32,814 nt of DNA from Oerskovia merdavium (lineage in GTDB: Bacteria; Actinomycetota; Actinomycetes; Actinomycetales; Cellulomonadaceae), in assembly GCF_014836755.1 (NCBI RefSeq), contig NZ_JACSQF010000001.1, positions 1 through 32,814 on the forward strand, given 5' to 3'. The translations under genes were made by a program, and so were the position numbers. Shown here in pieces: positions 4,564-32,814 of this stretch; position 1 is the first letter of the stretch, and each line of letters begins with the position of its first letter. Under the pieces are notes generated by a model, which had not been told where the DNA came from, did no database searches, and was given only the letters and a program-made list of their open reading frames with translations.

Positions 4564-7500
4564 TCACCCGCAGCTCGTGGCCCCGTAGGCGACGTCGAAG
4601 GTCGTCGTCCGACCCCCGGCCGTCGCGGTGACCTGCGCGACACCTGCCTCCACCGCGCCGGCACGCGCGCTGAAGGACTGGTGCGCGGACTTCCCCGGCG
4701 CGACGCCGAGGAAGGTCTTGGTGCCGAACGGCGTCGTGACGACGATGTCCGCGGGGACGTCCTCGTCGTTGACCACACGGACCGAGACGTTGGCGGTCCG
4801 CCCCACGCACTGGGACCTGACCGTCGTGGTGACCTCGACCTCGGGCTCCGGCTCGACCGTCAGGTCCTTGACCTGGACGTTGCGGAACGAGACGTCGTCG
4901 CCGTTGCCGTGGTTCTGCAGCCCGATGTAGCCGGACGACAGGTCACGCGACGGTTCGGTCGAGGTGAAGTCGTTGATCAGCGTCCCGTTGAGGAACACCC
5001 GGATCCGCTGCCCCTCGACCTTGATCTCGTACGAGTTCCACTCCCCCGGCGCCTTGAGGACGGCGTCGCGGGCCGCGAGGTCGGCGCTCTGGAACGTGTA
5101 GATCGCACCTGTCGTGCGGTCGTCGGCGTCCGTCGCGTCGATCTGGATCTCGTAGCCCTGGTTGACCGCGACCCACGGGTCGTTCCCCGGGTCGGGGAAC
5201 CCGACGAAGACGCCCGAGTTGTCGTCCCCGGCCATCTTCCAGTCGAGCGTGAGGCTGTAGGCCTCGAGCTCCTCGGGGTACCAGAGCAGGCCCATGCCCC
5301 CGGTGGACAGCATGGAGCAGTCCTCCTGGAGCGCGAACCCGCCCGGGCCGGCCATCTTCCAGCCCGCGAGCGACTCGGCCGTGCCGTCGAAGAGCATGCG
5401 GTAGCCCTCCGCGGGCGTGGCCGGCTCGCAGACCTCGGGCTCGTCCTCGACGAACGTGACGTCGCCGAACGCGACCGTCGTGGGAGCCGTCTGGTTCTTG
5501 CCGAGCGCGAACGGCCCCGGCGCGATCCCCGCGAGCGTGTCGTTCGTGACCGGTGCGAGGTCCGTCCAGGTGACGCCGTCGAGCGACCAGGAGCCCGTGA
5601 ACGTGCTCCCGTCACGCGTCAGGCGCACGTGATACGTCTTGTCGGCCTCGCGCGGCAGGTCGGACACGCCGGGCTGCGGGTTCTGGACCACGTCGCCCTT
5701 CTCGCTGCGTGCCTCGAAGCCCACGGTCCCGGCTCCCGCCCCGTTGTGGATCACGCCCACCTTGACGTAGTTGGCCTGGTCCTTGAAGACCATGAGGCCG
5801 CCCTGGTGGTAGTTCTGCGTGAGGTCGGCCGTGATGGTCGTCTCGACCGTCCACTCGTCACCCGTGACGACCTTGTTGCGCAGGATGTTCGGCACGGTCG
5901 AGTTGGTCGCGCCGAACACGTCGTCGTCCGTGGTGGTCAGGCGCAGCGCGCCGCCGCTCACCGCGAGCTTGGACGCGTCGGGGTTGACGACGTACCAGCG
6001 GCACGCGTCGAGCTCGGTGCCCTCGAACGTGTCGCTCGCCGTCGTGCCCTCGCACGTGGGCGGCGTGCCGTCCACGAGGCGCACGTAGTCGAACGCGACG
6101 TCGATCTGCGCCGTGCCCGCGAGCTTGCCGAGCGCGAAGACCCCGACCCCGGCGTCCTGCGCCGCCACGTTCTTCACGCCACCGGGCAGCGCGGCCCAGG
6201 ACTGGCCGTTGTCGACCGAGACCTGACCCGTGAACGTGTCGCCCGCCCGCGAGAGACGCAGCAGGTACTCGCCGTAGACCGGCTTGGCGAGGTTGTCGAT
6301 CCCCGGCTGCGGGTTCTGCGTGACGTCCCCGACCTCGCTGCGCAGCTCGGCACGCACCGAGCCGTCGTCGTTGCCGACCACGTCGAGCTTCACGTAGTTC
6401 TTCTCGTCGAGGTAGACGATGATGCCGCCCTGCTGGGCCGACCGGGCGAGCGGCGCCGTGAACGACGTCTCCACGGTCCAGGTGTCGCCCGGCTGGTCGG
6501 TCGTGACGATGTTCGGCACGGGCGAGTTCGCCGTGCCGTAGAAGTCGTCGTCGGTCGTGGTGACGACCCACTTGCCGTCGCGGACCTCGGCGAGGTCCGG
6601 GCGGTAGCTGTGGACGTCCCAGCGGCACGCGTCGATCGACGCACCGAGGAACTCGTCCTCGGGCCCGCGCTGCGGGTCGGGCTCGGTGCACTCGAGCGCA
6701 CCGAACGTCGTCACCTTCACGGTGCCCGACGCCGAGGCGCCGGCCGGGTCCTTGACGGTCACCTTGGCCGTGAACGCGCCGCCCGTCGTGTAGGTGTGCG
6801 AGACCTGGGCCCCCGTGCCGGTGCCCCCGTCGCCGAAGTCCCACGCGTACGTGAGGTCGTCGCCGTCGGCGTCGGTCGCCGTGGCCGTGAAGGTCACGTC
6901 GAGCGGGGCGTCACCCGTGGTGGGCGTGCCCGTGACGGCCGTGAGCCTGGGTGCCACGTTGTTCGCGGCCCCCTTGCCGGCGAAGTGGAGCGAGTCGACG
7001 TCGAACATGTCGCCCGTGCCCCCCGACGCCGAGCGCGCGACGAAGAACAGCGTGTTCGTGCCGCCCGGGTCGGTGATCGGCACGACGTCGGACGACGCGT
7101 GCGTCTCCCAGCTGCCCGTCGAGCCCATCGTGATGGTCCCGAGGAGCGGACCGTTCGCGGCTCCCACCCGGACGTCGATGAGACCGCCCGCGTTGCCCGA
7201 CGTGTAGCGCGCCGAGATGCCCGTGATGTCCTTGAGGTTCATCCGGTCGAACGCGAACCAGTCGCCCGCGGCGATGTAGCCGAGCTGCTTGGCGCCCTCG
7301 GCCGCGGTCTTGTCGACGACCTGGACCCCCTGCTGCGACGTGAAGTACTCGGCCTGCTTGGTGCGCGTGTGGAGCACCACCTCGTCGTCGCTGCTGAGAG
7401 CCGGCACGCCCTCGGCGCCACCGTCGGTGTACGTCGCGTTGACGACCCCGAAGATGTTGGCGTCGAGCCCGTGGCCCTCGTCCTTGACGGTCGTCAGGAC

Positions 7501-10113
7501 GCCCTCGCAACCGGTCGCGCTCGACAGCGGGTGACCGTGGTTGTCGTGGCCGAGAATGTACTCGACGACGACGTTGTCGCAGTCGACCTGCGTCCCGTCC
7601 TCGGCGTCGGTGACCGTGACCTTGAACGGCACCTGGTCACCGAAGTCGAAGAACTGCCCGTCCTGCGGCAGGTCGAGCGTCACCACGGGGGCGGTGTTGC
7701 CGACCGTGATCGTCGTGGTCGCGACGCCCGTCTTGCCGTCGGGGGCCGTGACCGTCAGACGGGCCGTGTACTGACCCTTGGTGGTGTAGGTGTGCGTCAC
7801 GACGGGCTCGGTCGAGTCGACCGTGCCGTCCGAGTCCACGTCCCACGCGTACGTGAGCGGCAGGTTCTCCGGGTGCTTGGAGGCCGACCCGTCGAGGACG
7901 ACCTCGAGCGGCACGCCGCCGTTGGTCACCGACGCCTCGATCTCGGCGACCGGGGAGCGCGAGCCCTTGACGTAGTCGATGCGGTAGACCGCGGAGTCCG
8001 CGGCGCCGCCGAAGTAGCCGCTGCCGTAGTCGAGCACGTACAGCGAGCCGTCCGGACCGAACTCGAGGTTCATGGGACGACGGATGTTCAGACCCGTCAG
8101 CGCCGGGGCGAAGCCCGCGGGGCTGCCGTCCTCGTCGAGCACGGCCTCCTTGATCCAGCGCCGCTCCCACTCGTACAGCAGGGGCTTGCCGTCGTAGTAC
8201 GCGGGGAACTTGGTCTCCGAGACGAGCTCGGGGTCGTAGTTGTAGACCACGGCGCCCATGGGCGACTCGCCGCCCGAGCCGAACGCGGGGACGTTGCCGC
8301 CGTCGTAGGGCTGCCAGGCCGCGATGGCCGGCGGCAGGTCCACGAGACCCGTGTTGTTCGGGCTCGTGTTCTTGGGAGCGCTGCAGTCGAACGCCGCGCC
8401 CGAGGTGCCCGTCGCGAAGTCGTAGTCGACGTAGGGGACGTTGGCCCCCACGCAGTACGGCCAGCCGTAGTTGCCGGGCTCGGTGATGACGTTGAACTCG
8501 ACCGAGCCGCCGGGGCCGCGGTTCGCGTTCGCCCCGCCCGCGTCGGGCCCGTAGTCACCGAGGTGCACGTAGCCCGTGGCCTTGTCGACCGAGAACCGGA
8601 AGGGGTTGCGGAATCCCATCGCGTAGATCTCGGGGCGGGTCTTGTCCGTCCCCGGGGCGAAGAGGTTGCCGTCCGGGATCGAGTAGGTCCCGTCGTCCTT
8701 CATGGTGATGCGCAGGAGCTTGCCGCGCAGGTCGTTGGTGTTGCCCGACGAGCGCTGCGCGTCGTAGGCGGGGTTGCGCGTCGCCCGCTCGTCGATCGGC
8801 GTGTAGCCGTCCGAGGCGAACGGGTTCGTGTCGTCACCCGTCGACAGGTAGAGGTTGCCCTCGGCGTCGAAGTCGATCTCACCACCGGCGTGGCAGCACG
8901 TGCCGCGCGAGGCCTCGACCTCGAGGATCTTCTTCTCACTCGCCAGGTCGATCGTGTTCTGGTCGGTCAGCGTGAAGCGCGAGAGCTGGTTGTAGCCGTC
9001 GAAGGCCGCGAACGACTCGGGACCGGTCCCGTTCTCCGGGGCGTCGCCCGCGGGAGTGCTGAGCCGCGGGGCGTAGTAGAGGTAGACCCAGCGGTTCTCG
9101 GCGAAGTCCGGGTCGATCGCGACCCCCTGCAGGCCGTCCTCGTCGTGCGAGTACACCGGGATGGTGCCCGCGAGCGAGGTCGTCGCGCCCGCGGTCGTGT
9201 ACCAGACCCGGCCGTCGCGCGAGGTGTGCAGGACGTCGCCCTCCGGCAGGACCGCGAGCGCGATGGGCTCGCCGGTCTTCTCGGCGCCCTTCGCGAGCGT
9301 GATCTGCTCGTACGAGCTCTCGACCGTCGCGCCGCACTCGGCGTCGACCGCCCCCGCGGCGGTCTGGATGCCGCCCAGGAGGTGCTGGACGAACGCAGGG
9401 TCGCTGTACGACTCCTGCGTGTGGCCGCCGCCCGTGTACCAGGAGCGGCCGCCGGCCACGTCCTGGCACCAGGCCGTCGGGTGGTCGGCGCCCATGGCCC
9501 CGCCGCCCGGTGAGTAGCTCGCCTCGTCGAGGGTCGCGAGCACGTGCACGTCCCCGCGCGGGTTCTCGCGGAAGTTGTACCACTCGTCGTACCGCTCCCA
9601 CGAGGCCGGCAGGTGCGCGGTCGAGGGGTGGTCCTTGTCCGCGACCACGACGGTCGCGGTCTGGTTCTGCGGGTGGGCCGAGAAGTACGCGCCCACGAGC
9701 TCGCCGTACCAGGGCCAGTCGTACTCGGTGTCGGACGCCGCGTGCACGCCCGCGTAGCCGCCGCCGTCCGCGATGTACGCCTCGAACGCGGCCTGCTGGT
9801 CGGCGTTGAGCACGTCGCCGGTCGTCGAGAGCCAGACGACGGCGTCGTAGCCCGCGAGGTTCGCCTCGGTGAACGCCCCGGCGTCCTCGGTCGCGGTCAC
9901 GGCGAAGTGGTTGTCCACGCCGAGCTGCTTGATGGTCGCGATCCCGGCCGGGATCGCGTCGTGCCGGAAACCGGCGGTCTTGGAGAAGACGAGCACGGAG
10001 AACTCGTCGTGGGCGGCGGCGGGTGTCGCCGTCAGTGCCAGGGTCGGGGCCGCGAGGGTCAGCGCCAGGAGCGCGCTCACCCCTGCCCGTCTCCTTCGGT
10101 GTCGTACGGTCAC
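4564..10113 (-). CDS. giant secreted protein C: ThuA-GSDH-PKD-DUF1080 multidomain
   Basis: An 1849-aa exported protein. Sec signal peptide at 1-34 (MTVRHRRRRAG, a hydrophobic core, then PAAA before His35). ThuA domain ~37-258 (SKTAGFRHDAI; GVHAASDTEYDW; DHPSTAHLP; GGRSWYTGGGHTQ). GSDH beta-propeller ~265-715 (GLQGVAIDPDF; CCHAGGEIDF; EIYAMGFRNPFRF; EPGNYGWPYC). PKD ~718-805. Linker 805-920. CBM6-like ~921-1050 (AEYFTSQQGVQ; GYIAAGDWFAF). Second PKD ~1051-1140. Two ~195-aa beta-sandwich (DUF1349/LamG-like) modules at ~1148-1347 and 1358-1557, each with a 'CRW' signature. DUF1080 (3-keto-disaccharide hydrolase) ~1571-1751. C-terminal 90-aa domain 1757-1849. No LPXTG or membrane anchor, so probably released. 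The GTG start at 10113 has AAAGGAG seven bases upstream. Likely role (inferred): extracellular oxidation and cleavage of a glycoside. Confidence 0.9.
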   Translation of the reverse strand: MTVRHRRRRAGVSALLALTLAAPTLALTATPAAAHDEFSVLVFSKTAGFRHDAIPAGIATIKQLGVDNHFAVTATEDAGAFTEANLAGYDAVVWLSTTGDVLNADQQAAFEAYIADGGGYAGVHAASDTEYDWPWYGELVGAYFSAHPQNQTATVVVADKDHPSTAHLPASWERYDEWYNFRENPRGDVHVLATLDEASYSPGGGAMGADHPTAWCQDVAGGRSWYTGGGHTQESYSDPAFVQHLLGGIQTAAGAVDAECGATVESSYEQITLAKGAEKTGEPIALAVLPEGDVLHTSRDGRVWYTTAGATTSLAGTIPVYSHDEDGLQGVAIDPDFAENRWVYLYYAPRLSTPAGDAPENGTGPESFAAFDGYNQLSRFTLTDQNTIDLASEKKILEVEASRGTCCHAGGEIDFDAEGNLYLSTGDDTNPFASDGYTPIDERATRNPAYDAQRSSGNTNDLRGKLLRITMKDDGTYSIPDGNLFAPGTDKTRPEIYAMGFRNPFRFSVDKATGYVHLGDYGPDAGGANANRGPGGSVEFNVITEPGNYGWPYCVGANVPYVDYDFATGTSGAAFDCSAPKNTSPNNTGLVDLPPAIAAWQPYDGGNVPAFGSGGESPMGAVVYNYDPELVSETKFPAYYDGKPLLYEWERRWIKEAVLDEDGSPAGFAPALTGLNIRRPMNLEFGPDGSLYVLDYGSGYFGGAADSAVYRIDYVKGSRSPVAEIEASVTNGGVPLEVVLDGSASKHPENLPLTYAWDVDSDGTVDSTEPVVTHTYTTKGQYTARLTVTAPDGKTGVATTTITVGNTAPVVTLDLPQDGQFFDFGDQVPFKVTVTDAEDGTQVDCDNVVVEYILGHDNHGHPLSSATGCEGVLTTVKDEGHGLDANIFGVVNATYTDGGAEGVPALSSDDEVVLHTRTKQAEYFTSQQGVQVVDKTAAEGAKQLGYIAAGDWFAFDRMNLKDITGISARYTSGNAGGLIDVRVGAANGPLLGTITMGSTGSWETHASSDVVPITDPGGTNTLFFVARSASGGTGDMFDVDSLHFAGKGAANNVAPRLTAVTGTPTTGDAPLDVTFTATATDADGDDLTYAWDFGDGGTGTGAQVSHTYTTGGAFTAKVTVKDPAGASASGTVKVTTFGALECTEPDPQRGPEDEFLGASIDACRWDVHSYRPDLAEVRDGKWVVTTTDDDFYGTANSPVPNIVTTDQPGDTWTVETSFTAPLARSAQQGGIIVYLDEKNYVKLDVVGNDDGSVRAELRSEVGDVTQNPQPGIDNLAKPVYGEYLLRLSRAGDTFTGQVSVDNGQSWAALPGGVKNVAAQDAGVGVFALGKLAGTAQIDVAFDYVRLVDGTPPTCEGTTASDTFEGTELDACRWYVVNPDASKLAVSGGALRLTTTDDDVFGATNSTVPNILRNKVVTGDEWTVETTITADLTQNYHQGGLMVFKDQANYVKVGVIHNGAGAGTVGFEARSEKGDVVQNPQPGVSDLPREADKTYHVRLTRDGSTFTGSWSLDGVTWTDLAPVTNDTLAGIAPGPFALGKNQTAPTTVAFGDVTFVEDEPEVCEPATPAEGYRMLFDGTAESLAGWKMAGPGGFALQEDCSMLSTGGMGLLWYPEELEAYSLTLDWKMAGDDNSGVFVGFPDPGNDPWVAVNQGYEIQIDATDADDRTTGAIYTFQSADLAARDAVLKAPGEWNSYEIKVEGQRIRVFLNGTLINDFTSTEPSRDLSSGYIGLQNHGNGDDVSFRNVQVKDLTVEPEPEVEVTTTVRSQCVGRTANVSVRVVNDEDVPADIVVTTPFGTKTFLGVAPGKSAHQSFSARAGAVEAGVAQVTATAGGRTTTFDVAYGATSCG

Positions 10114-10264: not shown

Positions 10265-11071
10265 CTAGTGGTCGCTCTCCCCCAGGCTCGCGGCGCCGTC
10301 GCCCGCGTCGTCCGGGTGGAGCGGGAGGAACACGTGGACGTGCCCCTGGTCTGCGGCGACGCTCAGTTCGTCGAGCTGGGTCGCGGCCATGCTCCACGTG
10401 TCCGCGGCGCGCAGGCGCAGGTCGCCCGCGAGCGCGAGGAGCTGCGACCGGGCCGGTTCGGCCGACGCCTCGGCGAGCTCGAGCGTGTCGAGCGCGTCGC
10501 CCAGCAGCGCGATCGAGACGCCCAGACCGTTGCGGGTGACGTTGTACCCCGACGCGCCCGTCGGGAGGGCCTCGGCCTCGGTCGCCAGGGCCGCGAGCTG
10601 GTCCCGCCACATGGCGAGCTGCTCGGGCGTCGCCGGGGTCCCGGGCGCGCCGTCGAGCGGGAGCGCCACGGACAGCTCGTGCATGGTCGGCACGAGCCCC
10701 TCCTGGGCCGAGACCGCGAAGTCGGTCACGACGCCCAGGTTCTCGGCGTCGCGCGCCACCTCGGCGGCCTCGAGCTCGGCCACGCGCGCGGGGTCGACGG
10801 CGTACGCGCCGGATGCTCCGTCGTCGGGCCCTCGCGTCACGGCCCAGGCGACCGCCGCGACGACCAGGGCGACCACCGCGACCGCGGCGACCGCGAGCCA
10901 CGCGCGACGAGCGCGCGAGAGGTTCCACGGCCACCGGGCGCTCGCGCGCTCCGGTGGCCGCTGCTGGGGACGGCCGGCACCGTCCCCGGACCGGGGCCCC
11001 GCTCCCCGAGCGGTCGCCGACCGGGCTGCGAGGTCCGCCTTGCTGCGTCGTGCTGCGGTCTTCTGCGCCAC
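10265..11071 (-). CDS. membrane-anchored protein of unknown family
   Basis: A 268-aa protein. Residues 1-56 are a basic cytoplasmic tail rich in Arg/Ala. One strong transmembrane helix spans ~57-79 (AWLAVAAVAVVALVVAAVAW), followed by a ~185-residue extracytoplasmic domain that looks all-helical, with repeated heptad-like Leu/Ala (EQLAMWRDQLAALATEAEAL; IALLGDALDTLELAEA). The C-terminus ends DQGHVHVFLPLHPDD and then GESDH, a His cluster that might bind metal. The GTG at 11071 was preferred over an upstream in-frame start because AGGA lies 9-10 bases before it and the extra 50 residues look non-coding. Its place between two giant secreted proteins suggests a linked role at the cell surface. I do not recognise the family. 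Confidence 0.75.
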   Translation of the reverse strand: MAQKTAARRSKADLAARSATARGAGPRSGDGAGRPQQRPPERASARWPWNLSRARRAWLAVAAVAVVALVVAAVAWAVTRGPDDGASGAYAVDPARVAELEAAEVARDAENLGVVTDFAVSAQEGLVPTMHELSVALPLDGAPGTPATPEQLAMWRDQLAALATEAEALPTGASGYNVTRNGLGVSIALLGDALDTLELAEASAEPARSQLLALAGDLRLRAADTWSMAATQLDELSVAADQGHVHVFLPLHPDDAGDGAASLGESDH

Positions 11072-11281: not shown

Positions 11282-14200
11282 TCAGCTGCAGGAGGCAGCC
11301 GCGTGGTCGACCGTGTACGTCGACGTCCGGTCCCCGATCGTCGTGGTGACCGTGACGGAACCCGCCTCGATCGCCCCGAGACGCGAGCTGAACGTCTGCG
11401 ACGCGGACTTGCCCGGAGCGACACCCGTGAAGGTCTTCGTCCCGAACGGCGTGCTCACCTTGATCGTCGCGGGCGCGTCGTCGGTGTTGACGACCCGCAC
11501 GTTGACGAGCACCTTGCCCGCGGTGCACTGGGTCTTGGCCACGACCTCGGCCGAGACACCACCCTCGACCGCGGGCACCGAGAGGGTGAGCGGCTCGCTC
11601 ACGTTCCCGGCGACGTCGACCGCGCGGTACAAGACCTCGACGGCCCCGTCCCCGACCACGACCGGCTCGCCGTACGTGAGCCACTCGCCCTCGGCCGTGT
11701 CGGCGAGACGGTACTCGACCCGCGCGACGCCCGAACCTGCGTCGGCACCCGCGAGGGTCACCGTGCGCTCGGCGAGCTCGGCCGTGGCCGTCGGCACCGT
11801 GGCGTCGATCTTGACCACGTGAGCGACCTCCTCGGAGACGTTGCCCGCCTCGTCGGACGCCCGGAAGGCGAGCGTGTGCTCCCCGTCCGTCGTGAGCGCC
11901 ACGCCGGCCGTGTACGGGGCCCAGGCGCCGTCGGCGACCTTGACCTCGATCGACGGCGCCTGCGAGACGTCGTCGGTGGCCGTCGCGGAGACCGTCACGG
12001 CCCCGGTGTTCCAGCCGGACGCGCCGGCCGCCGGGTCCTGGGCGACGGTCACGACCGGCGCCTGCGTGTCCTCGTCACCCGTGGTGACGTGGAACCAGTC
12101 GAACGCCACCTTGACCGGGACCTCCTGCTCGGGGCCGATGGCCACGAGACCGAAGGACGTCAGTGCCGCGTCGTTCGTGACGGGCGCCCCGAGGGACGTC
12201 CAGTTCACGCCGCCGTCGCTGACCCAGCCCTGGTAGGTGTTGCCCACCTTCTCCATGCGCAGGTACCAGTAGCCCGACTCGGTGGTGTCGGCGATCTCGA
12301 GCTGGCGGTTGCCGCCGCTCGAGGCCGCGTTCTTCTCCGACGCGAGCTCGGCACCCAGGTTCAGCGGGGTGCCCGGCTGGTTCTTGGCGACCACGTCGAG
12401 CTTGACGTAGTTGTCGTCGTCGCCGTACGCCATCAGGCCCGCGTACTGCCAACGGTGCAGCAGCGGAGCCTTGAAGCGGGTCTCCGCGACCCAGTCGCCC
12501 TCGGGGGCGGCCTGGAGCACGAAGTTGCGCGGGCTGACCGGGTTGTTGTTGTTGATGTCACCCGGCTGCGTGGTGATGCGCAGCTCGCCACCGGCGACCT
12601 CGACCTTCGAGGCGTCGTAGCGGACCACGTTGTTCCAGCGGCAGCCGTCGAGCGAGGTGCCGTCGAACTCGTCAGAAGGAACCCGCGTTCCATCGTCAGG
12701 TCCGTCCGTCGAGTCCGGCGTGACCTTGAACCAGTCGACCAGCGCGACCGAGTCGGCCGTGCCCGTGTCGCCCGCGGCGATGACGCCGAAGGTCGCGTTC
12801 GCCTTGACCGGGGCAGAGCCCGCGATCGCGGTCCACGTCTGGCCGTCCGCCGAGTACGCGGCCGTGATGGCCGTACCCGTCGAGGTCAGCTTGAGGTACA
12901 CCGACGACGGGAAGTTCGCGGCGACGTTCGTCTGGCCGTGCCACGTGCGCGCACCGCCGGTCTCGGTCTGGAACTCCAGGAAGCGGTTGCCGTTCTGGTT
13001 CTTCGTGAACGCGAACTTGGTGTACTCGTTGTCGTTCACGTGCACGAGGAGACCCGCGTGCTGCCAGTGCCGTGCGAGCGGGACCTCGACCTTGGTCTGG
13101 ATCTCCCACGCCCCGGCAGGTGCCGGCTGACCCAGGTAGCTGATCGGGCCCGGGACCGCCTCGTTGATGTCGCCCTGGACGACGGGCAGGACCGCCTTGC
13201 CGTCCGCGACCGTGATCGACTTCCCGGGCGCGGTGCGCACCACGGTCCAGCGACCGGTGTTGATCGACGCGGCGTCGAACTCGTCGGACTTCTGCGCCGC
13301 GCACTGCGGCGGCGTGCCCGTACCCGGCTCGGTCGGGTCGACCGGGTCGTCGTCGAACGTGAAGTCCTGGAACTCGACCGCGCTCGTGCTCGAGCTGTGC
13401 GCCGTCACGAACAGGCCGACGTCCTGGACCGACGCCGCACCCGGCAGGGACACCGGGTCGCCGATCTGGGTGAAGTTCTCGCCGTCCTTGCTCCACGACG
13501 CCGTGTACAGGTCGCCGTCACGCTCGATCCGCACCCACGCGGGGTAGCTCGTCGAGCTCGCCGCGGACGACGTCACGAGCTGCCCCGCGGCGTTGCCGCG
13601 CAGCCACTCGAAGCCACCGTTCGGACGGATGCCGAGGGCCGCGTAGCCCGGCGACTTGCCCGGCTGCGTCACGTCGTTGCGGACGATCAGGCCCGCCTTG
13701 GCGGACCCGTTGGAGTTGCCCTGGCTGTTGACCTTGACCGTCGCGGACCACTTCTCGTCCGCACCGGCCTCCTTGTAGATGGCCGAGTACTCGTCGGTGC
13801 CCTGCCACATGTTGGCGCCCGCAGAGGTCACGAGGTACTTGCCCTCGGACAGCTGCTCGAACGTGCCGTTCGCGTTGGTGTAGGTCTTCATGCCGGCGAA
13901 CAGGTCACCGACCTGCGCCATGACGATGCGGGACTTCGTGGTGAGGCCCTTGTCGTTCGTGGCGACCGCGGTCAGCTTGTAGTAGTTGTCCGCCGTCACG
14001 TTCCACGTCGTCGTGTACGGCGCGGACGTGTCCGTGCCGATCGACTGGCCGTTCACGAAGAACTCGACCTGCGTGACGGTGTTCTCGGCGTCCGTCGCGT
14101 CGGCCGAGACCGTGATCGCACCCTGCTCGAGCTGGACGCCCGCCTCGGGAGCGGTCACGACGACCTCGGGACGGGTCGTGGCCGAGATGCCCTTGCCGTG

Positions 14201-25061: not shown

Positions 25062-25068
25062 GTCCCAT

Positions 25069-25097
25069 ACCGTAGGGGGACTTATGTCGAGCGTCAA
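25069..25097 (-). promoter_or_regulatory. leaderless promoter of the sugar operon
   Basis: On the minus strand -35 TTGACG (25092-25097), a 17-base spacer and -10 TACGGT (25069-25074) stand 7 bases from the ATG of the dehydrogenase gene, with no Shine-Dalgarno site. Upstream DNA (25098-25160) is strikingly AT-rich for this genome, as expected at a regulated promoter. Confidence 0.75.
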
Positions 25098-25295: not shown

Positions 25296-26300
25296 CTACT
25301 CCTTGGTCGAGAACGCCGCGTCGAACGCCGCGTCGGGAGCCTCGAACGCGTACTGCTTGACGAACGCGAGGGCCTCGGGCGCACCCACGAGGCGGTCCAT
25401 GCCCGCGTCCTCCCACTCGACCGAGATCGGACCGTCGTACCCGATGCTGTTGAGCATCCGGAAGCTGTCCTCCCACGGGACGTCCCCGTGACCCGTCGAG
25501 ATGAAGTCCCAGCCACGGCGCGGGTCGGCCCAGGCCAGGTGCGAGCCCAGACGGCCGTTGCGGCCGTTGTGCATGCGCTTCTTGGTGTCCTTGCAGTCCA
25601 CGTGGTAGATCCGGTCCTGGAAGTCCCACAGGAACCCGACCGGGTCCAGGTCCTGCCACACCATGTGGCTCGGGTCCCAGTTCAGCCCGAACGCCTCGCG
25701 GTGGCCGATCGCCTCGAGCGTGCGGACCGTCGTCCAGTAGTCGTACGCGATCTCGCTCGGGTGGACCTCGTGCGCGAAACGGACCCCGACCTCGTCGAAC
25801 ACGTCGAGGATCGGGTTCCAGCGGTCCGCGAAGTCCTGGTAGCCCGCGTCGATCATGTCCTGCGACGCCGGCGGGAACATCGCCACGTACTTCCAGATCG
25901 AGGACCCCGTGAAGCCGACGACCGTCTTGACGCCCAGCCTGGCCGCCAGGCGCGCCGTGTTCTTCATCTCCTCGGCCGCGCGCTGACGCACGCCCTCGGG
26001 GGCGCCGTCGCCCCACACGCGGTCCGAGAGGATGTCGCGGTGACGCTGGTCGATCGGGTCGTCGCACACCGCCTGGCCCTTGAGGTGGTTCGAGATGGCG
26101 TAGACCTTGAGCCCGTGCGCCTCGAGCAGCGCGAGCTTGCCCGCGACGTACTCGTCGTCGTCCCAGCGCCAGGGATCCAGGTGGTCGCCCCAGCAGGCGA
26201 TCTCCAGGCCGTCGTAGCCCCAGCCGGACGCGAGGCGTACGACCTCCTCGAAAGGCAGGTCGGCCCACTGGCCGGTGAAGAGGGTGATCGGTCGTGCCAT
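25296..26300 (-). CDS. sugar phosphate isomerase/epimerase (TIM-barrel)
   Basis: A 334-aa cytoplasmic TIM-barrel of the AP-endonuclease-2/xylose isomerase-like superfamily. Probable metal ligands are Glu178 (AHEVHPSE), Asp209 (NWDPSHM), His233 or Asp235 (YHVDCKD) and Glu295 (SVEWED). It starts [20 protein letters not shown] and contains [20 protein letters not shown]. Relatives are annotated as sugar isomerases, epimerases or keto-sugar lyases, often next to Gfo/Idh/MocA enzymes in sugar, inositol or glycoside loci. It is clearly a different subgroup from the epimerase-like gene at 17498. The ATG has AAGGAG eight bases upstream. It lies between a CopC-like gene and a strong terminator. Substrate unknown. 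Confidence 0.88.
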
Positions 26301-26403: not shown

Positions 26404-27048
26404 TCAGGGGCGCTCGGCGGCCGTGGCCCGACGGCGGAGCACCAGCACGGCTCCGGCGGCAGCGAGCAGCACGACCACGCCGACGACGATCGCGGTCGTC
26501 GGGACGCCCGACGCCTCGTCCTCGCTCGCGGCAGCGGACGACGCGGCCTCGTCGCCCTGTGCGGCGACCTCGCCGTCGGCGCCGTCCTCCGCGGGCGCGG
26601 GCGGGGCCGACGGGGGGACCACGTCGATCTGCGTCGTCGCGGTCGTCGCCACGGGCGTCGTGGTCGTCGCGGTCACGGTCCAGTTGCCCTCGCTCAGGAC
26701 GTCGGGGGCCGACGTGTACCAGCCGACGCCCTCGGAGGCCGAGGAGAGCTGGATCGGACCGACCTCGGTGCCCTCCGCGGAGACCGCGGTCACCATGACG
26801 TCGACGATCTCCTCGACGGGGTGCCCGTCGGTCTTGTACGTCACGTTGACCGACACGCCCCCGGCACCGTCACCGCCGATCGACAGGATGATCTCCCCGC
26901 CGTGGGCGCTCGCCGGCGCCGCGCCAAGCACCGAGGCGAGCAGCAGGACGGCCCCTGCCAGGACCGCACGCAGCGCGTGCGAGAAGGGGCGGGGGCGCGG
27001 GGTACGCGTCCGGTCCGGACCGGAGCTCCGGTTCGCCTGCTGAGTCAT
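26404..27048 (-). CDS. CopC-like secreted, membrane-anchored protein
   Basis: A 214-aa cell-surface protein. Signal peptide ~1-48 (basic N-terminus, then [21 protein letters not shown]) with predicted cleavage before His49, so the mature protein would begin HGGEII. An Ig-like beta-sandwich resembling the CopC/YtkA group spans ~49-145 ([35 protein letters not shown]). An acidic Ala/Pro/Glu linker follows, then a C-terminal transmembrane helix near 182-205 ([19 protein letters not shown]) and a basic tail [10 protein letters not shown]. An N-terminal His is a copper ligand in true CopC proteins. Copper binding here is inference. Start choice is uncertain: ATG 27048 has GAGG 11 bases upstream, and an in-frame ATG at 27057 adds three residues. 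It lies just downstream of giant protein A. Confidence 0.75.
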
Positions 27049-27094
27049 GTCGCTCATCACCTCGTCGTGAAGGAAAGGGGTCGTGCGTCGGGCT

Positions 27095-27380: not shown

Positions 27381-30300
27381 TCAGCCGCAGCTCGCAGCGG
27401 CGTGGTCGATCGTGTACGTGCTGGTCCTCCCCTCGGCGTCGGTCACCGTGACGGTGACCTGACCGGCCTCGATCGACGCAGCACGGGTCGCGAACGACTG
27501 GTGGGCGGACTTGCCCGCCGCCACCCCCGTGAAGGTCTTGGTGCCGTAGGCCGAGCGCACCACGATCGTGACCGGGGCGTCGCCCGTGTTGACCGCGGTG
27601 ACGCCGAGCGTCACGCGGTTCGCCACGCACTTCGGTGCGGCCGTGACGGTCGCGGGGACCAGCTCACCGGCCGGCACCTCGAGCGAGGAGGCCGTGACGT
27701 TCCCGGCCACGTCCGTGGCCCGGTAGGCGAGGGTCGCCGCGGCGTCGCCGACGGCGACCGGCGCCTCGTACGCGACCCAGGTCGTGCCGTCGAGCGAGTA
27801 CTCGACCGACGCGATCCCCGAGACGTCGTCCGTGGCCGTGATCTCCACGGTGCGGTCCTCGCGCAGCGTCGCCGCTGCGGTCGGTCCGTCGCCGTCGATC
27901 TTGACCGCCACGTCGGCGCCCGTCACGTTCTCGGAGCCGGCCGAGGCCCGCACCTTGATCGTGTGCTCACCCGGTGCGTCCACGACCACGGGGGCCGTGT
28001 ACTCGGCCCACGCGCCGCCGTCGAGCTGGTACTCGCGGTAGACCTGCTGGCCTGCCGCACCGCCCGTGGTGGCGACCGTGACGGTCACCGGACCGGTCCA
28101 CCAGCCGTTCGCGCCCGACGGCGAGGCCGGGTCGAGCGACCCGCTCACCGTGAGCGGCTCGGCCTGGGGCCCCACGACGCGGAAGTGCTCGAACGTCGCA
28201 GTCGCGGAGGCCTGTTGGCCGGCTCCCAGGGCGTACAGACCGATCTTTGCGTCCGCCAGCCCCGGGTTGGTGACCTTCTCCGCCATCTCGGTCCACGTCA
28301 CGCCGTCGGCGCTGTACGAACCCGTGTAGGTCGTGCCCACCTTGGCCAGGCGCAACCACCACACGCCCTGCGTGAGGTTGTTGACGTTGGGCTGCGGGTT
28401 GAGGACGGCGGCACCGGCCTCGCTGCGCATCTCGAGCCCACGGTCGACCGCCGCGCCCGGCTGGTTCTTCGTGATGAAGTCCAGCTTGACGTAGTTGTCG
28501 TCGTCGCCGTAGAGGATCAGACCACCCTGCTGGTACTGCTGGTCGAACGTCGAGCCGTCGACCTTGGTCTCGACGGTCCAGTCACCAGCGGGCTGGTCCT
28601 GCAGGACGATGTTCGGCACGTCGGTGTTGCCCGTGCCGTAGATGTCCGTCGGGGTCGTGTCGATCTCGAGCTTGCCCCCCGCGACCCGCAGACCCGAAGC
28701 GTCCGGACGGACCACGCTGTTCCAGCGGCAGCCGTCGAGCGACGTCCCCTCGAACTCGTCGTCCGGCCCGGCCGCGGTGGCCGTGTCGTCCGGCGTGATG
28801 TGGAACCAGTCGAACTTGGCGTCGACCACGGCCGGCACCGAGCCGTCGTTCGCGAACGCCACGAGCCCGATCTTCGGGTTCACGAGGCCGTGCAGCGACT
28901 TGGTCTCGGACATCGCCGTGAAGTCCAGGCCGTCGGCCGAGTAGTACGCCCTGAGGTTGGACCCGTCGCTCGTATAGCGCACGTAGAACGTGTCCGGGAA
29001 GTCCGTCGTGATGTTCACGTTGGACGCGGCCACCTCGTTGGGTGCGCCGTTCTCCTCGCGGATGAACTGGAAGACGCGCGAGTTCGGGTTCGCCCCGGTC
29101 CCGCGGCCCTGGATCACCATCTTGGCGTAGTTGTCGCCGTCGCCCCACAGGAGCAGACCGGCCTGCTGGTACTGGGCACGCGCCGGGAAGGTGACCTTGG
29201 TGGTCGCCGTCCACGGGCCCGACGGGAGGTCCTGCAGGACGATGTTGGACACCGGTCCCTCGCCCTGGCCGTAGAAGTCCGCCTTGCTCGCCGGGATCAC
29301 GAGGTGACCGTCGGTGACCGCGAGCTTCTGGTCGCGACGGATGATCGTGGACCAGCGGTCCTCGTCCACCGCGGTGCCCGTGAAGTCGTCCGAGCGGCCC
29401 GAGAAGCACATGACCGGACCGGACTCGTTGACCTTGATGTTCACGTACTTGACCGTGTAGGCGCCGCCGGCGTCGGTCACTCGGACCTGCAGCCGGTAGG
29501 TGCCCGCCGCGGTGTACGTGTGCGAGAACTCGGGGCCGCCGTCGACGAACCCGCCGCCCAGCCCGTCGTCCCACGCGTAGACCAGGTCGGACGCCTCGCC
29601 GTCGGGGTCGGAACCCGTCGCGGTCGCGGTGACCGTCAGCGGGGCCGAGCCGACCAGGGTGGGCACGTCGAGCTCGACGTCGGGACGGATGTTGTCCGTG
29701 ACGCCGCGGCCGTCGATGTCCATCCAGTTGACGTTGATGCCGCCCGAGAGCAGGACGAAGTAGAGCGTCCCGCTGCCTTCCGGCACGTTCGTGAGCGGCG
29801 TCGAGACGTCGCGGTAGACCTGCCAGTCCCCCGTGTTCGGCACGGTGATCCGGCCGATCTCCGGGCCGTCCGGAGCGTCCCAGCGCAGCGAGACCACGCC
29901 GTTCGCGTTGGGCGAGGCGACGCGCAGGCTGATGGCCTCGACGTTCGTCAGGCTCACGGGCTCGTGCGCCCACCAGTCACCGGGCTCGATGTAGCCCAGG
30001 TTCTGACCGCCGCCCGCGGAGTCCGAGGTGGTCTCCTTCTGGACGCCGGGGGTGCCGCTGGTCCCGATCGAGGTCTCGCGACCCGTCGAGGTGTAGAACT
30101 CCGACTGGACGCGCTTGGGCTGGAGCACCTGGAGAGCGTTGCCCGTCAGGGGCACGCCGGCCTCGCCGCCGTCGTCGGTGTAGGAACCCTCGATGACCCA
30201 GAAGATGTTCGACTCGATGCCGTGACCCTCGTCGCGAGCGGTCTGGAGGACCCCCTCGCAGCCGTACAGCTCCTCCATGGGGTGAGCGTGCGAGTCGTGG

Positions 30301-32814
30301 CCGAGCGAGGTGCGCAGCGCGACCGACGAGCAGTCGACGTCGCCGTCGGGGTCCTCGACCGTGATCCGGTAGCGGACCTGGTCGCCCCACTCGAAGAACC
30401 CGCCGTTGTCCGGGAACTCGATCTTCACCGTGGGCGCCTGGTTGCCGACGACCACCGTGACGTTGGCGACGGCGAACTTGCCGTTGCTGTCGGTCGCGGT
30501 GAGCTGGGCCGTGTAGGAGCCGTTCGCGGTGTAGGTGTGGGTCGGGTTCGCCTCGGTCGAGGGCGCGGAGCCGTCGCCGAACGTCCACTGGAGCGCGATC
30601 GGGTCGCCCGACGGGTGACGCGTGCCCTCCGAGGAGAACTCGACCGTCAGGGGTGCCGCACCGCTCGTCACGTCCGCACGGGCGTGGGCGATCGGCGACG
30701 GGTCGCCCTGGACGTAGTTGACCTTGTAGACCGCGCTCGAGTCGTTGTTGCCGCCGAAGCCCGAGCCCCAGTCGATCACGTACAGCGCGCCGTCAGGACC
30801 GAAGTCGAAGTCCATGGGGCGGTCGAACCCGTTGGACGGGTCCAGCACGCCCGGCATGATCCGGTTGATGTCGACGATCTGGTCACGCTTCTCGCCGTCG
30901 AGCTGGATCGAGAACATCGTGCCGTGGTTCCACTCGCCGAACAGCGCCTTGCCGTCCCAGTACGCGGGCCACTTCACGTCGGAGTCGAGCTCGGGGTCGA
31001 ACTCGTAGACGGGGCCGCCCATGGGCGCACCGCCGCCACCGATCTCGGGGAACTGCGGGTTGGCCGCGCCGGTGTACCAGATCTCGGCGGCGATGGCGGC
31101 CGGGAGCTTCTGGATGCCCGTGTTGTTCGGCGAGTCGTTGGTCGTGCCCGCCGCGCAGTCGAACGACGCACCGGACTGGCCGGTCGCGAAGTTGTAGTCG
31201 ACGTACGACGTGTTGGCGCCCGTGCAGTACGGCCAGCCGTAGAAGCCCGGCTCGCTCACGACGTTCCACTCGACCGCGCCGCGGGGACCGCGAGCGGGGT
31301 CGGCCGAGCCCGAGTCGGGACCGTAGTCGCCGACCAGGACGTTCCCGGAGGCGTTGTCGATACCGATCCGGAACGGGTTGCGGAAGCCCATGGCGTAGAT
31401 CTCGGGCCGCGTCCTGTCCGTGCCCGGGGCGAACATGTTGCCCTCGGGGATCGAGTACGTGCCGTCGTCCTCGGGTGTGATGCGCAGGACCTTGCCGCGC
31501 AGGTCGTTCGAGTTCGCCGAGGAACCCTGGGCGTCGAAGTTCTTGCGGCCGGGACGCTCGTCGGTCGGCGTGAAGCCACCGGACTCGAACGGGTTGGTGT
31601 TGTCACCCGTCGCGAGGATCAGGTTGCCGTCCTCGTCGAAGATCATGTCCCCGCCCGCGTGGCAGCACGTGTCGCGCTGCGTGGTCACGGTCAGGAGCTT
31701 CTTCTCGCTCGTGGGGTCGAACGTCCTCGACGCGGTGTCGTAGGTGTAGCGCGAGATCCGGTTGTGCGGGCCGTCCGACCCCACGTTCGCGGGCGACCAG
31801 TAGGCGTAGAGCCAGCCGTTCGTCGCGAAGTCCGGGTCGAGCACCAGGCCCAGCAGCCCGTCCTCGTTGGCCTGCGTCACGTTGAGGCTCAGCGCCGTCG
31901 TCGTGACGTTGGCGTCGTGGTCGATGCGGCGGACGCGACCGTCACGCTCGGCGTAGAACACCGTGCCGTCGAGGGCGACGTCGAGCATCATGGGGTTGCT
32001 CGTGTCCTCGTCGAGCGCGACGCGCTCGAAGCTCGCGCTCTGCGTCGCGTTGCAGTCCGAGTCGACGACGCCCGCGGCGGTCTGGATGCCGCCCAGCAGG
32101 TGCTCGACGAATCCCGGCTCGGTGTAGCTGGCCTGGGTGTGCCCGCCGCCGGTGTACCAGGAACGGCCGCCCTCGTAGGTCTGGCACCACGCGATCGGAT
32201 GGTCAGAACCCATCTTCGCGCTGCCCGCGTCGTACGAGGTCTCGTCGAGGCTCGCGAGCACGTGGACCTTGTCTCGCGGGCTCGTGCGGAAGTTGTACCA
32301 CTCGTCGTGGCGGTCCCAGCGGGACGGCAGGTGAGCGGTCGAGGGGTGGACGCCGTCCTCGACCTTGATCGTGGCGTCCTGGTTCTGCGGGTGCCCCGAG
32401 AAGTAGGCGCCCACGAGGCCGCCGTACCAGGACCAGTCGTACTCGGTGTCGGACGCCGCGTGCACGCCGGCGTAGCCGCCGCCGTTCGCGATGTACCGCT
32501 CGAACGAGGCCTGCTGGTCGGTGTTGAGCACGTCGCCCGTGGTCGAGAGCCAGATCACGACCTCGTACTGCGCGAGGTTCTCGTCGTTGAAGGCGGCCGC
32601 GTCCTCGGTGACGTCGACCGTGAAGCCGTTCTCGGTCCCGAGCTTCTCGATCGCGGCGATGCCGGCCGGGATCGCGTCGTGCCGGAACCCGGCGGTCTTG
32701 GAGAAGATCAGCGCGTCGAAGGGGGCCGCGGCGGCCTCCTGGGGCACCACGACGGACGTGGTGGCGGACTGGGCGGCACCGGGGGTGGCGGGGCAAGCCG
32801 CCCCCCCCGGGGCC
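27381..32814 (-). CDS. giant secreted protein A: ThuA-GSDH-PKD multidomain (5' end off the window)
   Basis: At least 1789 aa from an internal GTG at 32750. The same frame stays open to the last base, reading ...TPGAAQSATTSVVVPQEAAAAPFD, so the true start and signal peptide lie beyond the edge. By position: ThuA ~32730-32070 (SKTAGFRHDAI; GVHAASDTEYDWSWYG). GSDH propeller ~32050-30700 (GLLGLVLDPDF; CCHAGGDMIF; EIYAMGFRNPFRI). PKD ~30700-30440. CBM6-like ~30110-29710. Second PKD ~29690-29420. Two ~195-aa beta-sandwich (DUF1349/LamG-like) modules at 29395-28805 and 28760-28190. Paired Ig region ~28130-27660. Shared 90-aa C-terminal domain 27650-27381. It is closest to C in the ThuA and GSDH halves but resembles B at the C-terminal side, and lacks DUF1080. 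Sugar-oxidising role inferred. Confidence 0.88.
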   Translation of the reverse strand, partial: APGGAACPATPGAAQSATTSVVVPQEAAAAPFDALIFSKTAGFRHDAIPAGIAAIEKLGTENGFTVDVTEDAAAFNDENLAQYEVVIWLSTTGDVLNTDQQASFERYIANGGGYAGVHAASDTEYDWSWYGGLVGAYFSGHPQNQDATIKVEDGVHPSTAHLPSRWDRHDEWYNFRTSPRDKVHVLASLDETSYDAGSAKMGSDHPIAWCQTYEGGRSWYTGGGHTQASYTEPGFVEHLLGGIQTAAGVVDSDCNATQSASFERVALDEDTSNPMMLDVALDGTVFYAERDGRVRRIDHDANVTTTALSLNVTQANEDGLLGLVLDPDFATNGWLYAYWSPANVGSDGPHNRISRYTYDTASRTFDPTSEKKLLTVTTQRDTCCHAGGDMIFDEDGNLILATGDNTNPFESGGFTPTDERPGRKNFDAQGSSANSNDLRGKVLRITPEDDGTYSIPEGNMFAPGTDRTRPEIYAMGFRNPFRIGIDNASGNVLVGDYGPDSGSADPARGPRGAVEWNVVSEPGFYGWPYCTGANTSYVDYNFATGQSGASFDCAAGTTNDSPNNTGIQKLPAAIAAEIWYTGAANPQFPEIGGGGAPMGGPVYEFDPELDSDVKWPAYWDGKALFGEWNHGTMFSIQLDGEKRDQIVDINRIMPGVLDPSNGFDRPMDFDFGPDGALYVIDWGSGFGGNNDSSAVYKVNYVQGDPSPIAHARADVTSGAAPLTVEFSSEGTRHPSGDPIALQWTFGDGSAPSTEANPTHTYTANGSYTAQLTATDSNGKFAVANVTVVVGNQAPTVKIEFPDNGGFFEWGDQVRYRITVEDPDGDVDCSSVALRTSLGHDSHAHPMEELYGCEGVLQTARDEGHGIESNIFWVIEGSYTDDGGEAGVPLTGNALQVLQPKRVQSEFYTSTGRETSIGTSGTPGVQKETTSDSAGGGQNLGYIEPGDWWAHEPVSLTNVEAISLRVASPNANGVVSLRWDAPDGPEIGRITVPNTGDWQVYRDVSTPLTNVPEGSGTLYFVLLSGGINVNWMDIDGRGVTDNIRPDVELDVPTLVGSAPLTVTATATGSDPDGEASDLVYAWDDGLGGGFVDGGPEFSHTYTAAGTYRLQVRVTDAGGAYTVKYVNIKVNESGPVMCFSGRSDDFTGTAVDEDRWSTIIRRDQKLAVTDGHLVIPASKADFYGQGEGPVSNIVLQDLPSGPWTATTKVTFPARAQYQQAGLLLWGDGDNYAKMVIQGRGTGANPNSRVFQFIREENGAPNEVAASNVNITTDFPDTFYVRYTSDGSNLRAYYSADGLDFTAMSETKSLHGLVNPKIGLVAFANDGSVPAVVDAKFDWFHITPDDTATAAGPDDEFEGTSLDGCRWNSVVRPDASGLRVAGGKLEIDTTPTDIYGTGNTDVPNIVLQDQPAGDWTVETKVDGSTFDQQYQQGGLILYGDDDNYVKLDFITKNQPGAAVDRGLEMRSEAGAAVLNPQPNVNNLTQGVWWLRLAKVGTTYTGSYSADGVTWTEMAEKVTNPGLADAKIGLYALGAGQQASATATFEHFRVVGPQAEPLTVSGSLDPASPSGANGWWTGPVTVTVATTGGAAGQQVYREYQLDGGAWAEYTAPVVVDAPGEHTIKVRASAGSENVTGADVAVKIDGDGPTAAATLREDRTVEITATDDVSGIASVEYSLDGTTWVAYEAPVAVGDAAATLAYRATDVAGNVTASSLEVPAGELVPATVTAAPKCVANRVTLGVTAVNTGDAPVTIVVRSAYGTKTFTGVAAGKSAHQSFATRAASIEAGQVTVTVTDAEGRTSTYTIDHAAASCG

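What the first reader, a model, noticed from the sequence alone, without database searches (positions are those of the whole stretch)
4564..32814. Candidate extracellular keto-sugar (oxidative glycoside) utilisation locus
Three giant secreted proteins pair a ThuA domain with a PQQ-type sugar dehydrogenase propeller, and one adds a DUF1080 (3-keto-disaccharide hydrolase) domain. Between them lie a CUT2 sugar importer, a Gfo/Idh/MocA dehydrogenase and two different TIM-barrel isomerase/epimerases. DUF1080, Gfo/Idh/MocA and TIM-barrel partners are the known parts of 3-keto-glycoside metabolism. Putting oxidation and cleavage outside the cell on single giant chains, with reduction and epimerisation inside, would be a distinctive arrangement. 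The domains are seen. The pathway is inference.
Basis: partly seen in the sequence, partly recalled or inferred. Interest (0 to 1): 0.78.

Follow-up and report, generated by a model that had tools for sequence, protein, structure and literature searches.

The report
Secreted oxidative sugar-cleaving giants with importer
A soil actinobacterium carries a gene set that probably attacks sugar chains outside the cell by first oxidising them and then breaking the bond, and takes the fragments in for repair to ordinary sugar; the oxidising part looks like an enzyme type not known for this job.

Summary
Three secreted giants (G1, G2, G3; about 1.8-2.1 kaa) carry ThuA + a GSDH-fold (PQQ-type) propeller + PKD + CBM6 + ConA-like modules; G1 also has a DUF1080 domain. 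Between them, on one strand, lie a CUT2 importer, a Gfo/Idh/MocA dehydrogenase and two TIM barrels. The locus continues past the window: a second Gfo and importer, then a divergent ROK protein and lone ThuA. The co-occurrence test was passed: among 118 genomes of the class, DUF1080 (E<=1e-12) occurs in 20 of 21 genomes with this propeller family and 0 of 97 without; one TIM barrel (TIM2) in 20/21 versus 13/97. Elsewhere the same modules are separate or reshuffled neighbours. TIM2 is related to a 2-hydroxy-3-keto-glucal hydratase, so the best reading is oxidation and DUF1080 cleavage outside, then import, hydration and reduction inside. PQQ-site residues are intact, but C3 oxidation by this fold is inference, and no pqqC was found. 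Two small membrane-anchored proteins of no known family (26404-27057, 10265-10876) accompany many giants. Verdict: a new variant of the known C3-oxidation route, with a possibly new class of glycoside 3-dehydrogenase.

The parts
4564..10113 (-). G1, 1849 aa secreted: ThuA - GSDH propeller - PKD - CBM6 - PKD - DUF1349/GH43_C2 (ConA-like) - DUF1080 - C-terminal domain
   Evidence: Pfam; N-terminus by eye
4867..5403 (-). DUF1080 / 3-keto-disaccharide hydrolase domain of G1 with the QNHG and EIQID motifs
8449..9270 (-). GSDH propeller of G1 (core match); equivalents of sGDH H144, R228, N229, G247, P248, E253 present, Cys-Cys directly before the His
9364..9996 (-). ThuA domain of G1
10265..10876 (-). 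W4: small protein with N-terminal hydrophobic anchor (by eye), predicted helical bundle, invariant GH.H motif; no family in Pfam or NCBIfam; next to giants in 7 of 79 named loci (8 by similarity alone)
11282..17461 (-). G2, 2059 aa secreted: ThuA - GSDH - PKD - CBM6 - Big_7 - several DUF1349/GH43_C2 - C-terminal domain; lacks the Cys-Cys
17498..18391 (-). TIM1: ketose / tagatose / allulose 3-epimerase-like TIM barrel
18560..19786 (-). CUT2 substrate-binding protein (Peripla_BP_4; lipoprotein signal by eye)
19893..21011 (-). CUT2 permease 1
21008..22147 (-). CUT2 permease 2
22144..23802 (-). CUT2 double-domain ATPase
23799..25097 (-). Gfo/Idh/MocA oxidoreductase (gene finder prefers a start at 24971, 390 aa); no secretion signal seen by eye
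25296..26300 (-). TIM2: TIM barrel related to 2-hydroxy-3-keto-glucal hydratase (PDB 8ro4); E.HP.E, DPSH, KD and EWE motifs shared
26404..27057 (-). W13: secreted, predicted beta-sandwich with C-terminal hydrophobic anchor, His at the presumed mature N-terminus; no family over cut-off; next to a giant in 30 of 79 named loci
27381..32814 (-). G3, at least 1810 aa: ThuA - GSDH - PKD - CBM6 - PKD - DUF1349/GH43_C2 - C-terminal domain; 5' end lost in an assembly gap

Best explanation
This is an actinobacterial version of the C3-oxidation route for breaking glycosidic bonds, moved to the outside of the cell. The giants bind polysaccharide through CBM6 and ConA-like modules (inferred). Their GSDH-fold propeller, with PQQ taken from outside, oxidises a sugar residue of the chain, most likely to a 3-keto residue (inferred). 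The DUF1080 domain of G1, possibly helped by ThuA, then splits the activated bond by elimination or hydrolysis (family function from the literature, not tested here). The 3-keto-sugar or 2-hydroxy-3-keto-glycal enters by a CUT2 importer. Inside, TIM2 hydrates the glycal and a Gfo/Idh/MocA enzyme reduces the 3-keto-sugar to an ordinary hexose; TIM1 may epimerise ketoses (family relationships shown, reactions inferred). W4 and W13 are membrane-anchored surface partners of the giants, perhaps for anchoring or electron transfer (speculation). A divergent ROK protein is the likely regulator (inferred from position).
For: Shown: PQQ/Ca-site equivalents intact, aligned to sGDH and kept in 90 giants (H144 89/90, R228 88/90, N229 88/90, G247 88/90, P248 87/90, E253 81/90). 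DUF1080 at E<=1e-12 in 20 of 118 genomes of the class, all among the 21 with the propeller family at E<=1e-80 (20/21 vs 0/97, Fisher 1e-21; own genome included). In 18 of those 20 a DUF1080 hit lies within 8 kb of a propeller/ThuA hit (37 of 57 rows). TIM2 20/21 vs 13/97 (p 5e-13) and Gfo2 17/21 vs 12/97 (p 1e-9); within 20 kb of a propeller/ThuA hit in 12 of 20 and 13 of 17 genomes, where position alone would give about 4% on average. Modules are split and reshuffled elsewhere: L091 has separate [GSDH-CBM6] and [ThuA-DUF1080] genes next to TIM2, Gfo2, binding protein and permease; L085 has one chain GSDH-PKD-CBM6-ThuA-DUF1080. TIM2 is related to 8ro4, named 2-hydroxy-3-keto-glucal hydratase (E 7e-35). 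Gfo2 gets 367 bits from the NCBIfam levoglucosan dehydrogenase model, below its cut-off 650, and 310 bits to 6a3f (deposited as putative dehydrogenase; recalled as levoglucosan dehydrogenase). In the same genome a ThuA-less GSDH protein is followed by a TIM barrel with a TAT-like signal (16.3 bits, model cut-off 16.7) related to 8bvk, the A. tumefaciens 3-keto-O-glycoside eliminase (E 3.5e-10). No other secreted oxidase of the two kinds tried: the one GMC_oxred_C hit (E<=0.001) and the 8 Gfo hits (E<=1e-8, of 25 first-look candidates) show no signal by eye.
Against: No activity has been tested. Solved relatives of the propeller are named glucose dehydrogenase, putative oxidoreductase or Hedgehog-interacting protein; as recalled, the dehydrogenases act on C1, not C3. 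pqqC, the only PQQ gene tried, is not found in this genome and is over cut-off in 1 of 118, so the cofactor must be imported or is not PQQ. Only 8 of 90 giants carry DUF1080 in the same chain; the closest G1 relatives, in Cellulosimicrobium funkei and cellulans, show none in the loci held. 0 of 35 Micromonospora/Verrucosispora loci have the importer genes within the flank held, and 20 of 57 DUF1080 rows lie more than 20 kb from the listed propeller hits (those are capped at 9 per genome). The importer-Gfo2-TIM2 part also occurs without giants (Gfo2 in 12 of 97 propeller-free genomes, 11 of these with TIM2). Counts are by genome, not corrected for ancestry. ThuA's reaction is unknown.
Confidence: 0.55

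Rival explanations
1. The propeller is an ordinary PQQ aldose dehydrogenase that oxidises C1 of reducing ends, or feeds electrons to other redox enzymes; the keto-sugar genes nearby serve a separate intracellular pathway, and DUF1080 acts on 3-keto sugars made by other organisms.
For: Solved relatives of the propeller include glucose dehydrogenases; Gfo2 with TIM2 exists in 11 propeller-free genomes; 82 of 90 giants lack DUF1080 in-chain.
Against: C1 oxidation gives no 3-keto substrate, yet DUF1080 (E<=1e-12) occurs only in propeller genomes of the sample (20/21 vs 0/97), is fused or adjacent to the propeller, and an enzyme related to a second kind of 3-keto-glycoside-cleaving enzyme follows another propeller in the same genome.
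Confidence: 0.25
2. DUF1080 and the ConA-like domains are plain glycosidases or binding modules, and the locus is an ordinary polysaccharide degradation locus in which ThuA/GSDH have no oxidative role.
For: A Thermogutta DUF1080 protein is cited as endo-xanthanase/lichenase (PMC9007349 passages) and DUF1080 was proposed as a xanthan glycosidase (PMC5673643 passages); giants carry CBM6 and DUF1349/GH43_C2 modules.
Against: Catalytic-site residues of the propeller are kept in 88-89 of 90, which a scaffold would not need; hydratase-like TIM2 and levoglucosan-dehydrogenase-like Gfo2 sit in the operon.
Confidence: 0.12
3. The locus serves inositol-type or rare-sugar uptake (CUT2 + Gfo + TIM barrels), with giants as neighbours by chance.
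For: Gfo is also similar to inositol dehydrogenase models and TIM2 weakly to IolE; TIM1 resembles ketose 3-epimerases.
Against: Giants and these genes recur together in 12 genera and within 20 kb in 12 of 20 (TIM2) and 13 of 17 (Gfo2) propeller genomes of the class sample; inositol model scores are below cut-off.
Confidence: 0.08

Closest known systems
Levoglucosan pathway LgdA-LgdB1-LgdB2-LgdC of Bacillus smithii (PMC7676230, passages read)
   Same: Oxidation, elimination, hydration and reduction with Gfo/Idh/MocA-type enzymes, two sugar-phosphate-isomerase-type proteins, a LacI-type regulator and sugar ABC importer genes in one cluster; Gfo2 scores best with the levoglucosan dehydrogenase model (below its cut-off).
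   Different: Acts on a small anhydrosugar with NAD-dependent oxidation; no secreted giants, PQQ-type propeller, ThuA or DUF1080 in the passages read.
A. tumefaciens GlycDH-AtOGE-AtHYD-Gfo operon (PMC10628242, section 7 and passages)
   Same: Same four-step logic; TIM2 is related to 8ro4, named 2-hydroxy-3-keto-glucal hydratase (its source organism is not shown in the listing), and another locus of this genome has a TIM barrel with TAT-like signal related to AtOGE (8bvk).
   Different: Oxidant there is a flavoenzyme (GlycDH) studied with a TAT-pathway signal protein; here a GSDH-fold propeller stands in its place.
Caulobacter lactose system LacABC + DUF1080 + transporter + two epimerases + reductase (PMC9007349, passages)
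   Same: Proposed extracytoplasmic oxidation and DUF1080 cleavage, then transporter, two epimerase-type proteins and a reductase: nearly the same gene set.
   Different: Periplasmic, separate proteins and a LacABC dehydrogenase; here giant multidomain chains and a PQQ-type propeller in an actinobacterium.
Bacteroides BT2157-BT2159 3-keto-glycoside enzymes (only mentions seen; the Nature 2024 paper is not held)
   Same: BT2157 is cited as a DUF1080 3-ketotrehalose hydrolase; NCBIfam names BT_2158 and BT_2159 families glycoside / disaccharide 3-dehydrogenase, to which Gfo and Gfo2 score weakly.
   Different: Oxidation there by Gfo-type enzymes; no PQQ-type propeller known to me.
Soluble quinoprotein glucose dehydrogenase and other GSDH-fold proteins (1c9u, 8re0, 2ism, 3a9g)
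   Same: Propeller family and active-site residues.
   Different: No Cys-Cys before the catalytic His in the three GSDH alignments displayed (8re0, 2ism, 3a9g); here it is present in 84 of 90. No fusion to ThuA or DUF1080 in those chains.

Membership tests
C3-oxidation (3-keto-glycoside) catabolic systems | enzyme that makes a 3-keto sugar | not testable with these tools
   Two Gfo enzymes related to levoglucosan dehydrogenase and the propeller are candidates; no activity data
C3-oxidation (3-keto-glycoside) catabolic systems | 3-keto-glycoside cleaving enzyme (DUF1080 or OGE-like TIM barrel) | tested here: met
   By family only: DUF1080 domain in G1 over the Pfam cut-off, relatives incl. 8rr2 and 8tda
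C3-oxidation (3-keto-glycoside) catabolic systems | hydratase for 2-hydroxy-3-keto-glucal | tested here: met
   By family only: TIM2 related to 8ro4, E 7e-35, shared motifs; substrate not tested
C3-oxidation (3-keto-glycoside) catabolic systems | cytosolic 3-keto-sugar reductase of the Gfo type plus importer | tested here: met
   By family only; no signal seen by eye in the Gfo frames
PQQ-dependent GSDH (sGDH) family | fold-family profile match | tested here: met
   PF07995 in all three giants
PQQ-dependent GSDH (sGDH) family | catalytic His and PQQ/Ca-site residues | tested here: met
   residue roles recalled
PQQ-dependent GSDH (sGDH) family | PQQ made by the organism (not obligatory for members) | tested here: not met
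   pqqC not found in own genome; the same profile rang over cut-off in one of 118 genomes, which serves as positive control; other pqq genes not searched
Levoglucosan dehydrogenase (NF052479) | equivalog score over cut-off 650 | tested here: not met
   Gfo2 367, Gfo 155 bits
D-psicose/allulose 3-epimerase (NF051856), for TIM1 | equivalog score over cut-off 300 | tested here: not met
   141 bits
CopC / YtkA-like copper proteins, for W13 | profile or fold match | tested here: inconclusive
   YtkA E 0.075, 14.1 bits against cut-off 25.9; Foldseek CopC-type hits at E about 0.02-0.04 among many other beta-sandwiches

The most novel reading that the evidence does not exclude
The GSDH-fold propeller of these giants is a third, unrelated class of glycoside 3-dehydrogenase (beside flavin enzymes and NAD-dependent Gfo enzymes): a secreted quinoprotein that oxidises residues of bound polysaccharide at C3, hands the product to a DUF1080 enzyme on the same or a neighbouring chain, and passes electrons by way of a vicinal disulfide and a small membrane-anchored partner (W13 or W4).
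Probability: 0.35. Interest if true: 0.8.

Novelty: new variant of a known kind. Interest (0 to 1): 0.62.

Why it matters
It would assign a role to a widespread, often multi-copy family of giant secreted proteins, connect ThuA to keto-sugar chemistry, and could give biocatalysis a soluble PQQ enzyme that oxidises sugars selectively at C3.

Tried and rejected
Plain inositol catabolism was considered and set aside (scores below the models' cut-offs). A flavin GMC oxidase as the extracellular oxidant: only one GMC_oxred_C hit at E<=0.001 in the genome, in a frame without a signal by eye and on another contig; other flavin families were not searched. A secreted Gfo as oxidant: none of the 8 hits at E<=1e-8 shows a signal by eye; first showed only four of them because of its motif filter, and 17 of 25 first-look candidates were below the threshold and not read. 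The first PQQ test (19 genomes) had no positive control and was repeated with a wider sample. W13 and W4 folds: models good in the core (mean pLDDT 74 and 84), but no PDB match at E<=0.001, so function stays open. The N-terminal and the internal His of W13 are lost together in one Micromonospora clade, which hints at a shared site but is a single clade. S. coelicolor locus tags that I recalled for PDB 2zds gave 3 papers with passing mentions (listing only). Literature: the direct search for DUF1080 together with PQQ, GSDH, Gfo/Idh/MocA or ThuA gave 5 papers, none with DUF1080; the 8 papers with DUF1080, PF06439 or 3-keto-disaccharide hydrolase and the listings showed none on such giants by title or abstract start. 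The library holds open-licence papers only; the Nature 2024 and Angewandte 2024 papers are not held. The mapping of the B. thetaiotaomicron lyase residue H275 (named in PMC13273386) onto the QNHG His of G1 was not established. On re-check, the distance count had used 92 of the 128 hit rows; it was repeated with all 128 and gave the same 12 of 20 and 13 of 17.
Full report
What is there. The window is the first 32,814 bases of a 523-kb contig in a 4.49-Mb genome. Every gene of the finding reads on the minus strand. From right to left: G3 (27381 to the window edge), W13 (26404-27057), TIM2 (25296-26300), Gfo (23799-25097), ATPase (22144-23802), two permeases (21008-22147, 19893-21011), binding protein (18560-19786), TIM1 (17498-18391), G2 (11282-17461), W4 (10265-10876), G1 (4564-10113). 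Permeases, ATPase and Gfo overlap by 4 bases. The window stops at a 10-N assembly gap (contig 32815-32824), so G3 lacks its start; the Oerskovia enterophila orthologue begins with a signal-like stretch. Beyond the gap the same strand carries a second Gfo (33156-34340), a second binding protein, a permease and an ATPase, then a divergent ROK-family protein and a lone ThuA. G3 and its neighbours are nearly identical to Oerskovia enterophila (TIM2 99%, Gfo 97%, ATPase 99%; branch 0.009), so the genome is probably an Oerskovia (inference).

Are the domains likely to work? The profile of the three ThuA-GSDH regions aligns to soluble quinoprotein glucose dehydrogenase with His144, Arg228, Asn229, Gly247, Pro248 and Glu253 in register (the roles of these residues are recalled). 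In 90 giants from the named loci and the window these are kept in 89, 88, 88, 88, 87 and 81 rows (one or two rows have a gap there). A Cys-Cys pair directly before the catalytic His is present in 84 of 90, but not in G2; it is absent from the three GSDH alignments displayed. ThuA has many residues kept in at least 97% of rows, several of them His, Asp and Glu. The DUF1080 domain is related to solved DUF1080 proteins including 8rr2 and 8tda, and across 13 aligned members E100, Q102, D104, W137, N138 and QNHG (178-181) are invariant.

Flanks are up to 10 kb and shorter at contig ends. Within them, 23 of 79 loci in 12 genera hold CUT2 genes plus Gfo and/or a TIM barrel; of 35 Micromonospora/Verrucosispora loci none does. 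In an even sample of 118 genomes of the class, own genome included, propeller-family hits at E<=1e-80 occur in 21 (at most 9 candidates scored per genome). DUF1080 by Pfam at E<=1e-12 occurs in 20, all among those 21 (the same 20 with my own profile at E<=1e-25). Weaker DUF1080 hits in other genomes are not excluded: some had first-look candidates that scored worse. TIM2 (E<=1e-60) occurs in 33, 20 of them among the 21; Gfo2 (E<=1e-110) in 29, 17 among the 21. Fisher values are 1e-21, 5e-13 and 1e-9, not corrected for ancestry; the 21 genomes fall in 7 families. With all 128 hit rows, DUF1080 lies within 8 kb of a propeller/ThuA hit in 18 of 20 genomes (37 of 57 rows), TIM2 within 20 kb in 12 of 20, Gfo2 in 13 of 17; position alone would give about 4% on average. 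Against this, Gfo2 also occurs in 12 propeller-free genomes, 11 of them with TIM2: the inner module can live without the giants. And DUF1080 sits in the same chain in only 8 of 90 giants; the closest G1 relatives, in Cellulosimicrobium funkei and cellulans, show no DUF1080 in the loci held.

Split and shuffled forms. In G105 (L091) the order is permease, binding protein, Gfo2, TIM2, [GSDH-CBM6], [ThuA-DUF1080]. In G055 (L085) ROK, ATPase, permease, binding protein, Gfo2 and TIM2 are followed by a single chain GSDH-PKD-CBM6-ThuA-DUF1080. In G111 (L086) GSDH-CBM6-ricinB and ThuA-DUF1080-ricinB are neighbours of TIM2. The same modules thus occur as one chain, as two chains and in different order, which is good evidence that they serve one process. 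In this genome a ThuA-less GSDH-PKD-CBM6 protein (contig C41) is followed by a TIM barrel with a TAT-like signal (just under the model's cut-off) related to 8tcd, 8tcs, 8tct and 8bvk; 8bvk is the A. tumefaciens O-glycoside eliminase according to PMC10628242. Relatives of that TIM barrel lie in L006, L007, L069, L071, L077, L080, L087, L088 and L091; a signal was seen by eye in L083 and L087 only, the others were not checked. So propellers of this family sit beside DUF1080 and beside relatives of an unrelated 3-keto-glycoside-cleaving enzyme.

Mechanism. The inner genes match the oxidation-elimination-hydration-reduction logic described for levoglucosan in Bacillus smithii (PMC7676230, passages) and for glycosides in A. 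tumefaciens (PMC10628242, section 7 and passages): TIM2 is related to 8ro4, named 2-hydroxy-3-keto-glucal hydratase (E 7e-35); Gfo2 scores 367 bits with the levoglucosan dehydrogenase model (cut-off 650) and 310 bits with 6a3f, which I recall as that enzyme. The Caulobacter lactose cluster with DUF1080, transporter, two epimerases and a reductase (PMC9007349, passages) is the nearest in overall plan. What is missing here is the known kind of extracytoplasmic oxidant. The one GMC hit in the genome shows no signal by eye; the 8 Gfo hits show none. That leaves the propeller as the best candidate to make the 3-keto substrate outside. This step is inference: known dehydrogenases of the fold act on C1 as I recall, and no pqqC was found here; the cofactor would have to come from outside, as I recall is the case for some other PQQ enzymes.

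New partners. W13 (26404-27057) and W4 (10265-10876) match no Pfam or NCBIfam family over a cut-off. By position, W13 homologues lie next to a giant in 30 of 79 named loci in 11 genera and W4 in 7 of 79 in 4 genera (W4 in 8 by similarity alone). On a tree of the 90 giants, W13-associated and W4-associated rows fall on two sides of one branch (SH-aLRT 96, quick method; 48 rows have neither, and one row has both and was counted as W13). W13 is predicted as a beta-sandwich with a C-terminal helix, W4 as a helical bundle; fold searches gave nothing at E<=0.001. Electron transfer or anchoring are guesses.

Verdict. Observation confirmed; interpretation partly supported and sharpened. The system is a new variant of a known kind. 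The open and testable point is whether a quinoprotein propeller is a glycoside 3-dehydrogenase.

Noticed in passing
window 26404-27057: W13, an orphan family with an Ala-His signal junction and a second His, next to giants in 30 of 79 named loci; both His are lost together in one Micromonospora clade.
   Followed up: partly
window 10265-10876: W4, an orphan membrane-anchored predicted helical bundle with an invariant GH.H motif, beside the G1/G2-type giants.
   Followed up: partly
L083 13720-14679 (G000 C41): TIM barrel with a TAT-like signal, related to the 3-keto-O-glycoside eliminase 8bvk, directly after another GSDH-PKD-CBM6 protein.
   Followed up: partly
L082 10943-14140 (G000 C33): Another large chain: PA14 - weak DUF7133 (propeller by recall) - CBM35/CBM6 - DUF1080 - a C-terminal domain like that of the giants.
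   Followed up: partly
L087 and L086: An ebo-like cluster (UbiA-like, TatD-like, TIM barrel, phosphodiesterase, polyprenyl synthetase; names by eye and recall) lies beside TIM2 and the GSDH/DUF1080 genes.
   Followed up: no
window 397-3320: 5-oxoprolinase-type genes (carboxyltransferase CT_A_B/CT_C_D and LamB/YcsF), on the same strand, left of the locus.
   Followed up: no
contig C11 32815-32824 and 34385-34394: Two 10-N assembly gaps; the first cuts G3 and lies at the window edge.
   Followed up: yes
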